In this document: in pieces, positions 1 through 1,455 of the stretch | How the letters are laid out: the number at the start of each line of letters is the position of its first letter | Numbering within the stretch: position 1 is the first letter of the stretch | Assembly (NCBI GenBank): GCA_021738345.1 | Contig: JAIPCE010000016.1 | Coordinates: 1 to 34,646, forward strand | Source of the DNA: Rhodoferax sp. | GTDB taxonomy: Bacteria > Pseudomonadota > Gammaproteobacteria > Burkholderiales > Burkholderiaceae_C | Direction of reading: 5' to 3' | Length of the DNA stretch: 34,646 nt | The notes under the pieces: model-generated | Database searches by the model: none | Seen by the model: the letters and a program-made list of their open reading frames with translations, nothing else | Told to the model about the DNA's origin: nothing | Program-made: the position numbers and the translations under genes

Positions 1-1455
1 GATTTGCGTGGTGGTGAGCGCCACCATCTGGTCGGTAGTGAGTGCTGCGATTTGTGCAGTCTTGAGCGCTCCTACTTGCGAGGTCTTGAGTACCGCCACG
101 TCTTCTGTCTGGATCGCTGCGACTTGATCAGTGCTTAGCACAGCTATGCCCGATGTGGTCACGGCCGTGATCTGGTTGGTCCCGAGAGCGGCCACCTGAT
201 TGGTGGTTAGCGCTGCTACCTGTGCGGTTTTGAGCGCTTCAATTCCAGCCGTTGTCACCGCCCCCACCTGGTCGGTGGTCAGTGCAGCCACATTGGCTGT
301 GTTGAGCGCCGCTATTTGCGCTGTCTTGAGCACCGCTATGTCTTCGGTCTGAATCGCAGCCACCTGGTCGGTTGTCAAAGCATTGATGCCCGCAGTGCTC
401 AACCCACTAATTTGCGTAGTCGTCAAAGCCACTACTTGATCCGTCGTCAAGGCCGCTATTTGCGCCGTCTTGAGTGCGCCAATTTGTGAGGTCTTCAGTA
501 CCGCTACGTCCTCCGTCTGAATTGCTGCAACCTGGTCGGTGCTCAGCGCCGCTATTCCAGCCGTGCTCAGCGCCGTGATCTGGTTGGTACCAAGTGCCGC
601 CACCTGATTGGTAGTCAGCGCTGCAACCTGGTTCGTCTTTAGAGCAGCTACCCCCGTCGTCGTCATCGCCCCCACCTGGTCAGTGGTCAGGCCCGCGACG
701 TTGGCTGTGTTGAGCGCCGCTATTTGCGCTGTCTTGAGTACCGCAACGTCTTCCGTCTGAATCGCCGCCACCTGGTCCGTCGTCAATGCGTTGATTCCAG
801 ATGTACTCAGTCCACTGATTTGTGCAGTGGTCAGCGCAACCACCTGGTCCGTCGTCAACGCCGCTATTTGCGCCGTCTTGAGCGATGCAATACCTGCGGT
901 ACTTACCACGCCGACCTGATCGGTCGTCAAGGCAGCAATGCTCGCGGTGCTTAACGCTGAAATTTGCGACGTTTTTAAAACAGCGATATCCGCTGTCTCT
1001 ATTGCCGCGACCTGATCCGAGGTCAACGCACTAATGCTGGCTGTACTTAACATGCCAATTTGAGACGTGGTCAGTGCCATTACTTGGTCGCTAGTAAGCG
1101 CTGCAATTTGCGACGTTTTAAGCGCAGCGATACCGCCATTCTCAACGACCTTTATCTGGTCCGTGGTCAATGCCGCGACACCGTCCGTCGTCAACGCCTG
1201 CAACTGGCTGGTTTTCATTGCCGCCACATCGGCAGTCTCAATTGCAGCGACCTGGTCTGTCCTGAGCGCTGCAATACCTGCAGTCGTCAGAGCCCTAATC
1301 TGGGAGGTGGAAAGGATGGCAATGTGGTCGGTGGTAAGGGCTGCCACCTGGTCCGTACGCAATGCCGCAATGTCGCTGGTCGATAGCGACTGGATGGAGT
1401 CGGTTCCTAACGCAGCGATACCGTCTGTCGTAAACCCAAGAATGCTAAAAGCCAT
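1..1455 (-). CDS. Large octapeptide-repeat protein, N-terminal 485 codons (C-terminus truncated by window edge)
   Basis: Minus-strand frame open without stop from ATG at 1455 to base 1, verified codon by codon. Starts MAFSILGFTTDGIAALGTDSIQSLSTSDIAALRTDQVAALTTD..., then continuous 8-residue units of the type AALTTDQV / AAIQTEDV / AVLKTAQI. Absent from the ORF track because it is partial. Confidence 0.9.
   Translation of the reverse strand, partial: MAFSILGFTTDGIAALGTDSIQSLSTSDIAALRTDQVAALTTDHIAILSTSQIRALTTAGIAALRTDQVAAIETADVAAMKTSQLQALTTDGVAALTTDQIKVVENGGIAALKTSQIAALTSDQVMALTTSQIGMLSTASISALTSDQVAAIETADIAVLKTSQISALSTASIAALTTDQVGVVSTAGIASLKTAQIAALTTDQVVALTTAQISGLSTSGINALTTDQVAAIQTEDVAVLKTAQIAALNTANVAGLTTDQVGAMTTTGVAALKTNQVAALTTNQVAALGTNQITALSTAGIAALSTDQVAAIQTEDVAVLKTSQIGALKTAQIAALTTDQVVALTTTQISGLSTAGINALTTDQVAAIQTEDIAVLKTAQIAALNTANVAALTTDQVGAVTTAGIEALKTAQVAALTTNQVAALGTNQITAVTTSGIAVLSTDQVAAIQTEDVAVLKTSQVGALKTAQIAALTTDQMVALTTTQI

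What the first reader, a model, noticed from the sequence alone, without database searches (positions are those of the whole stretch)
1..1455. Giant octapeptide-repeat protein with perfect 24-nt periodicity next to the filament genes
The minus-strand frame encodes ~60 consecutive 8-residue units (consensus roughly A-[AV]-[LIV]-x-T-x-[QDEG]-[IV]) with no indel breaking the 8-aa register. It begins almost at the N-terminus with no obvious signal peptide. Every unit keeps hydrophobic positions 3 and 8 and Thr at 5, suggesting a solenoid. Octad repeats with higher-order layers recall ice-nucleation proteins, although the motif here (LxTxQI/V) is different. The open end at base 1 means the true size is unknown and probably large. 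Function is unknown.
Basis: partly seen in the sequence, partly recalled or inferred. Interest (0 to 1): 0.85.

Follow-up and report, generated by a model that had tools for sequence, protein, structure and literature searches.

The report
Giant octad-screw secreted protein, flagellum-linked
The window starts with the first part of a huge bacterial protein built from one eight-residue unit repeated dozens of times, predicted to fold into a long screw of tiny helices; relatives suggest it is pushed out of the cell by its own export machine, switched on together with the flagellum and often sugar-coated, so a repeat family of unknown function becomes testable.

Summary
In detail: window 1-1455 (-) encodes 60 in-register octads, cut by the contig end. 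The motif is catalogued: Pfam PF20080 (ALTTAQ repeat, 453 bits), a family without a known function. AlphaFold2 models it confidently (pLDDT 96; 94 without any alignment) as one short alpha-helix per octad, unlike beta-solenoid ice-nucleation proteins. The only solved sequence relative is HeliScrew4 (apparently designed). Octads repeat with a dominant 3.4-octad period in 17 of 21 proteins, as a screw would give. Same-genus relatives place the gene in a cassette after fliD-fliS-fliT: OEP channel, Sel1 protein, ALTTAQ gene, then HlyB-HlyD; the C-terminus carries a FrpC-SPM-like calcium-binding fold whose cleavage Asp is replaced by Thr/Ser. Flagellum-linked copies have sigma-28-type promoter matches (5 of 7; 1 of 17 in other copies). 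O-GlcNAc-transferase-like GT41 genes neighbour ALTTAQ genes in 9 of 16 other PF20080 genomes of a phylum-wide sample. Best reading: a type I-secreted helical-screw surface fibre, expressed late in the flagellar cascade and, in many relatives, O-glycosylated on its Thr/Ser ladder. Secretion is well supported; glycosylation and adhesion are inferred. The window copy's own C-terminus and exporter were not recovered.

The parts
1..1455 (-). 5' part (485 codons, 60 octads) of a giant ALTTAQ-repeat gene, cut by the contig end at base 1
   Evidence: open frame; PF20080, 453.5 bits, 17 stretches; octad statistics; AlphaFold2 pLDDT 96.2 and 93.8
1461..1466 (-). Shine-Dalgarno-like GGGGTG upstream of the ATG
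   Evidence: read directly from the sequence
1625..1651 (-). candidate sigma-28 (FliA) promoter TTAA-N15-GCCGATGA, 169 nt upstream of the start codon
   Evidence: 10 of 12 consensus bases, 1.5% of dinucleotide shuffles as good; comparable or better sites upstream of the gene in four of six cassette orthologues
1903..3816 (-). Sel1-repeat gene of the cassette
   Evidence: PF08238, 336 bits; orthologues at 42-62% identity next to ALTTAQ or its exporter in 6 same-genus genomes
3794..5191 (-). outer-membrane channel (OEP; NCBIfam TIGR01845 NodT type), overlaps the Sel1 gene by 23 bp
5284..5847 (-). fliT (mechanical ORF; the real start is probably downstream)
   Evidence: PF05400
5598..6194 (-). 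fliS (mechanical ORF)
   Evidence: PF02561
6103..9066 (-). fliD (mechanical ORF, 987 aa)
   Evidence: PF02465 and PF07195
9209..10780 (-). flagellin
   Evidence: PF00669 and PF00700
23030..23749 (+). sigma factor with regions 2, 3 and 4 in the flagellar cluster, presumably FliA (sigma-28)
   Evidence: PF04542, PF04539, PF04545; position downstream of flhA-flhF-like genes

Best explanation
The finding is the N-terminal part of a giant surface or extracellular fibre protein. Its body is an alpha-helical screw: each octad makes one short helix starting at the near-invariant Thr/Ser, and about 3.4 octads make one turn, so 17 octads close five turns. It has no Sec signal and is exported post-translationally by a type I system (HlyB ABC transporter, HlyD adaptor, and the OEP channel as outer-membrane exit) whose genes flank it; the C-terminal FrpC-SPM-like domain then folds outside on binding calcium. 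In the flagellar locus it is transcribed as a late gene from a sigma-28 promoter, together with filament assembly. In many relatives a neighbouring cytoplasmic TPR-GT41 transferase puts sugars on the octad Thr/Ser ladder before export. The likely role is a long adhesive or coating fibre deployed by motile cells. Shown by sequence: repeat, family, operon linkage in relatives, C-terminal fold in relatives, promoter matches. Predicted: screw fold. Inferred: export, glycosylation, calcium folding, adhesion.
For: Fold: AlphaFold2 pLDDT 96.2, pTM 0.87 with 31 relatives, and pLDDT 93.8, pTM 0.83 for the other half without any alignment, three of five models confident; sequence match to 9zem HeliScrew4, E 5e-18. 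Screw period: strongest Fourier peak at 3.38-3.42 octads in 17 of 21 proteins of alpha- and betaproteobacteria. Export: HlyB-HlyD directly downstream of the ALTTAQ 3' end in G040, G031 and G036, whose other contigs end inside the 5' half after OEP-Sel1; G006 has ALTTAQ 3' end then HlyB; G013 has ALTTAQ-GT41-Sel1-HlyB-HlyD-OEP on one contig; HlyB subclade present in 14 of 41 genus genomes, all 14 PF20080-positive, against 23 of 41 overall, Fisher p 2e-5; HlyB-HlyD also next to ALTTAQ in the more distant G074, G081, G085, G113. C-terminus: 6SJW FrpC SPM, E 6e-35. Sigma-28: 5 of 7 cassette upstreams score at least 10/12, one perfect 12/12, against 1 of 17 other ALTTAQ upstreams. GT41: within a few genes of ALTTAQ in 9 of 16 non-own PF20080 genomes of a phylum sample and in 7 of 18 named loci; genome co-occurrence 15 of 17 against 98 of 382, p 2e-7; by genus p 0.01. 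Thr/Ser at octad position 2 is higher in GT41-linked proteins (median 0.89 against 0.65, p 0.005; phylum sample alone p 0.015).
Against: The window's genome (90.8% complete) holds no HlyB of this subclade, best 31% identity, and no second contig with the missing 3' part, so its own C-terminus and exporter are unproven. Its only GT41 (C94, about 30% identity) is not linked to the gene, and the window and G015 cassettes have no GT41 next to them, so glycosylation is weakest for this very copy. The OEP is of the NodT type usual for RND efflux. A fast-folding alpha-solenoid would be awkward for a type I system that threads unfolded chains. Joining halves across contigs is inference. p-values are not corrected for phylogeny: 11 of the 17 positive genomes come from one family. 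Two cassette copies (L080, L081) lack a good sigma-28 match.
Confidence: 0.6

Rival explanations
1. Secreted through type I but not glycosylated: GT41 next to ALTTAQ genes modifies flagellin or other proteins, and Thr/Ser at position 2 is only a helix-start residue.
For: GT41 also occurs next to flagellins without ALTTAQ in the region read (G023:C8); GT41-like enzymes are known flagellin modifiers in other bacteria (own knowledge); the model places the Thr at the first turn of each helix.
Against: GT41 is linked to ALTTAQ in loci where no match to the window's flagellar genes was found (L060, L063, L065, L066, L071); HeliScrew4 has Pro at that position and several natural ALTTAQ proteins have Thr/Ser there in only 21-43% of octads, so the fold does not require it.
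Confidence: 0.35
2. An intracellular or periplasmic scaffold or ruler of the flagellum that happens to sit beside a transport operon.
For: Position just after fliD-fliS-fliT and sigma-28-type promoter.
Against: Most ALTTAQ loci are not flagellar; gene order with HlyB-HlyD recurs in distant genomes; the C-terminal domain is that of a secreted RTX protein; homologues carry Ig-like, RTX and two-partner-secretion domains.
Confidence: 0.08
3. Beta-solenoid related to ice-nucleation or antifreeze proteins.
For: Octad period and layered higher-order repeats.
Against: All-alpha prediction at high confidence with and without alignment; match to HeliScrew4.
Confidence: 0.02
4. A decaying or assembly-artefact repeat with no full-length product.
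For: The contig ends inside the repeat, and so do the contigs of five or more relatives.
Against: 485 codons open with the key octad positions kept throughout; complete open frames of 1,454 to 5,432 aa elsewhere, including a one-contig chromosome; breaks in long repeats are expected of short-read assembly.
Confidence: 0.05

Closest known systems
Pfam PF20080 ALTTAQ repeat
   Same: 453 bits over the whole N-terminal part, 17 stretches, same octad
   Different: no function is known for the family; this copy sits in a flagellar, sigma-28-like, type I secretion cassette
HeliScrew4 (PDB 9zem), apparently a designed protein
   Same: 108 residues align without gap in octad register, E 5e-18
   Different: 120 aa; has Pro where the natural proteins have Thr/Ser; no paper found in the library; not among the fold-search matches, so structures were not compared
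FrpC self-processing module of Neisseria meningitidis (6SJW, 6SJX)
   Same: C-terminal domain of the relatives aligns over about 170 aa, E 6e-35, acidic calcium-type loops kept
   Different: the residue before the module's first Pro is Thr or Ser in 24 of 24 ALTTAQ proteins, where FrpC has the scissile Asp414 (PMC7078468)
HMW1 adhesin with HMW1C (GT41) and HMW1B
   Same: large surface protein with a dedicated cytoplasmic GT41 enzyme and a dedicated exporter (PMC3983070)
   Different: two-partner secretion and N-glycosylation by an AAD-type GT41; here type I secretion and a TPR-type GT41 as in O-GlcNAc transferases
Mesothelin superhelix (8cx3)
   Same: best Foldseek match in the PDB, superhelix of short helices
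   Different: TM-score only 0.37-0.50, 13-14% identity; not evidence of kinship
Type I-secreted giant adhesins (LapA, SiiE class; own knowledge)
   Same: giant repeat protein encoded with ABC exporter, adaptor and outer-membrane channel
   Different: alpha-helical octads instead of Ig-like domains; no retention module looked for

Membership tests
PF20080 ALTTAQ repeat | score above the curated cut-off of 26.4 bits | tested here: met
   453.5 bits
Type I secretion substrate | HlyB and HlyD genes adjacent | tested here: inconclusive
   met in same-genus and distant relatives; not found in the window's own incomplete assembly
Type I secretion substrate | no N-terminal Sec signal, uncleaved C-terminal signal | tested here: inconclusive
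   N-terminus MAFSILGFTTDGIAAL has no signal peptide; C-terminus of the window copy not recovered; a functional signal cannot be tested by these tools
RTX proteins | GGxGxD nonapeptide repeats (PF00353) | tested here: not met
   none in the 485 aa of the window nor in the complete paralogue P0001; some other ALTTAQ homologues do carry PF00353
FrpC-type self-processing module | fold and calcium-binding sequence | tested here: met
   in the paralogue and relatives, E 6e-35 to 6SJW; not testable for the window copy itself
FrpC-type self-processing module | scissile Asp-Pro bond | tested here: not met
   Thr-Pro or Ser-Pro in 24 of 24
Ice-nucleation protein | beta-solenoid of its characteristic repeat | tested here: not met
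   all-alpha models; no such Pfam hit
Sigma-28 (FliA) regulon | TAAA-N15-GCCGATAA upstream | tested here: met
   10 of 12 in the window, 12 of 12 in G031; activity not tested
GT41-modified glycoprotein | sugar on octad Thr/Ser | not testable with these tools
   only gene linkage and residue statistics

The most novel reading that the evidence does not exclude
ALTTAQ proteins form a previously undescribed class of Gram-negative surface glycoprotein: a natural one-helix-per-octad screw with a 17-octad, five-turn repeat, whose Thr/Ser ladder is modified by a dedicated O-GlcNAc-type GT41 transferase in the cytoplasm before type I export, and which in this genus has been recruited into the flagellar regulon.
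Probability: 0.35. Interest if true: 0.85.

Novelty: new variant of a known kind. Interest (0 to 1): 0.62.

Why it matters
PF20080 has no known function. This work gives it a predicted fold, a sequence-derived screw pitch, an export route, a likely regulator and a candidate modifying enzyme, each open to a simple test. If the GT41 link holds, it would join O-GlcNAc-type glycosylation with type I secretion of giant fibres, a pairing for which no paper was found in the searched library, and would supply a natural counterpart of the HeliScrew4 fold.

Tried and rejected
The missing 3' part was sought in the own genome by PF20080, by the SPM-like domain (only the paralogue) and by HlyB (nothing close). 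Paper searches for ALTTAQ, PF20080 and HeliScrew/9zem gave nothing relevant; PMC12775518 (solenoid design) does not mention it. Foldseek against PDB and viral models gave no convincing fold match. PADLOC: nothing for the repeat protein; the Sel1 gene's hit to PtuA covers only a short stretch and is dismissed. NCBIfam and PHROGs hits to the repeat were weak or unnamed. A window-wide sigma-28 scan with 14-nt effective spacing was barely above chance (9 found, 4.4 expected); only the comparison of orthologous upstream regions at 15-nt spacing was informative. Ice-nucleation and intracellular-scaffold readings were rejected for the reasons under rivals. A first fetch failed on a length limit.

Full report
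1. What is there. The window is one whole contig (G000:C315), so base 1 is an assembly edge. From ATG at 1455 the minus strand is open for 485 codons to that edge. After a few residues it runs as octads in perfect register: 60 units, Thr at octad position 2 in 57 of 61, Ile/Val at 5 in 59 of 61, a Leu-type residue at 8 in all. The finding's core observation is confirmed and its coordinates are right.

2. It is a known repeat family. Pfam PF20080 (ALTTAQ_rpt) scores 453.5 bits. No function is known to me for it and none was found in the library. It is rare: 17 of 399 Pseudomonadota genomes, but 23 of 41 genomes of the window's own genus. Homologues combine it with RTX repeats, Ig-like domains, two-partner-secretion domains and calpain domains, so it is a module of large secreted proteins. 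The window's genome has a second, complete copy of 1,454 aa on another contig, between unrelated metabolic genes.

3. Fold. AlphaFold2 on residues 1-250 with 31 in-register relatives gives pLDDT 96.2 and pTM 0.87; every octad is one 5-6 residue alpha-helix beginning at the conserved Thr. Residues 251-485 folded with no alignment at all give the same picture, pLDDT 93.8 and pTM 0.83, although two of five models failed. The PDB sequence search finds one relative, HeliScrew4 (9zem), E 5e-18; it looks like a designed protein, but no paper was found. Fold searches give only loose superhelical matches, best mesothelin at TM 0.37-0.50; 9zem is not among the listed matches, and may simply not be in that library. 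So the structure is predicted, with one experimental sequence relative, and ice-nucleation-like beta structure is not supported.

4. A screw with a fixed pitch, predicted from sequence. Self-similarity at 136 aa (17 octads) is the highest or among the highest lags in most long relatives of alpha- and betaproteobacteria, with 7- and 10-octad components. A Fourier analysis over octads finds its strongest peak at 3.38-3.42 octads in 17 of 21 proteins; shuffled octads of L060 reach 1.8 at most where the real peak is 15. A 17-octad repeat alone would not single out its fifth harmonic. The simplest reading is a screw with 3.4 octads (27 residues) per turn, 17 octads making five turns.

5. Neighbourhood. 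On the minus strand the order is flagellin, fliD, fliS, fliT, OEP channel, Sel1-repeat gene, ALTTAQ. Six same-genus genomes share the OEP subclade at 48-66% identity; in five of them Sel1 and the ALTTAQ 5' end follow, and the contig then ends inside ALTTAQ; in G028 the contig ends right after OEP. The missing half appears on other contigs: G040:C203, G031:C55 and G036:C253 start with an ALTTAQ 3' end followed by HlyB and HlyD; G015:C3 has HlyB at its very edge. G013 shows fliD-fliS-fliT-ALTTAQ at one contig end and ALTTAQ-GT41-Sel1-HlyB-HlyD-OEP at another contig start. That these are halves of single loci is inference. The HlyB subclade occurs in 14 genus genomes, all with PF20080 (Fisher p 2e-5). 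In distant genomes G074, G081, G085 and G113 the order GT41, HlyB, HlyD, ALTTAQ recurs. Type I secretion is therefore well supported for the family. For the window's own copy it is by analogy, because its assembly lacks this HlyB.

6. C-terminus. In relatives the repeats run into a domain that matches the FrpC self-processing module (6SJW, E 6e-35). In FrpC the Asp414-Pro415 bond before the module is cut after calcium-induced folding (PMC7078468). All 24 ALTTAQ proteins examined have Thr or Ser at that place. The fold is shared; cleavage is not expected. Some alphaproteobacterial ALTTAQ proteins end without this domain.

7. Flagellar control. Upstream of the window gene, 169 nt before the ATG, lies TTAA-N15-GCCGATGA, 10 of 12 matches to the sigma-28 consensus. 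Five of seven cassette copies score at least 10, one (G031) 12 of 12, at 89-169 nt; only 1 of 17 ALTTAQ genes outside the cassette does. A sigma factor with regions 2-4 lies in the window's flagellar cluster. The site is a prediction.

8. GT41. TPR-GT41 genes of the O-GlcNAc-transferase kind lie next to ALTTAQ genes in 7 of 18 named loci, including three alphaproteobacterial ones, and within a few genes in 9 of 16 non-own PF20080 genomes of the phylum sample, that is 5 of 7 genera. Co-occurrence at genome level is 15 of 17 against 98 of 382 (p 2e-7), and by genus 6 of 8 against 64 of 224 (p 0.01). Thr/Ser at octad position 2 is more frequent in linked proteins (phylum sample alone p 0.015). 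HeliScrew4 has Pro there and some natural copies have few Thr/Ser, so the fold does not force it. O-glycosylation of the ladder before export is the best explanation, at about 50% for linked relatives. For the window copy it is lower, since its only GT41 is distant and unlinked.

9. Verdict. A real, non-random feature, correctly seen, belonging to a known but functionally blank repeat family. The new content is the predicted screw, its pitch, the type I cassette with an SPM-like end, the sigma-28 signal and the GT41 link. Function as a surface fibre or adhesin is inferred from these and from comparison with HMW1-type (PMC3983070) and LapA-type systems (own knowledge).

Noticed in passing
window 6103-9066 (-): The fliD frame is 987 aa, with recognised N- and C-terminal domains far apart, so it carries a large insert compared with usual FliD proteins (own knowledge of typical size).
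   Followed up: no
L159:1250-12553 (-) (G137:C92); L161:161-7678 (-) (G145:C1): Open frames of 3,767 and 2,505 aa containing GT41 modules (several in the first), near ALTTAQ genes.
   Followed up: partly
L105 (G016:C39): One GT41 gene (6755-9007 +) lies between two ALTTAQ frames (4702-6924 - and 9219-11237 +).
   Followed up: no
L149 (G133:C78), L059, L069, L074, L076: ALTTAQ genes stand in tandem pairs or triplets.
   Followed up: no
L079:10601-14293 (+), L080:7021-10719 (-): A 1,230-aa gene with a family-2 glycosyltransferase domain sits between flagellin and fliS in two genomes.
   Followed up: partly
L148:9355-13134 (+): A TPR-GT41 enzyme fused to a family-2 glycosyltransferase domain, divergent from HlyB-HlyD-ALTTAQ.
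   Followed up: no
Mycobacterium phage Squirty NC_026588 36397-36888: Weak octad-like match (25% identity) in a phage hypothetical protein; probably chance or a convergent repeat.
   Followed up: no
control genome Caulobacter vibrioides: The only one of 14 well-known control genomes with PF20080; it also has a GT41 match, so a laboratory species may be at hand for tests.
   Followed up: no
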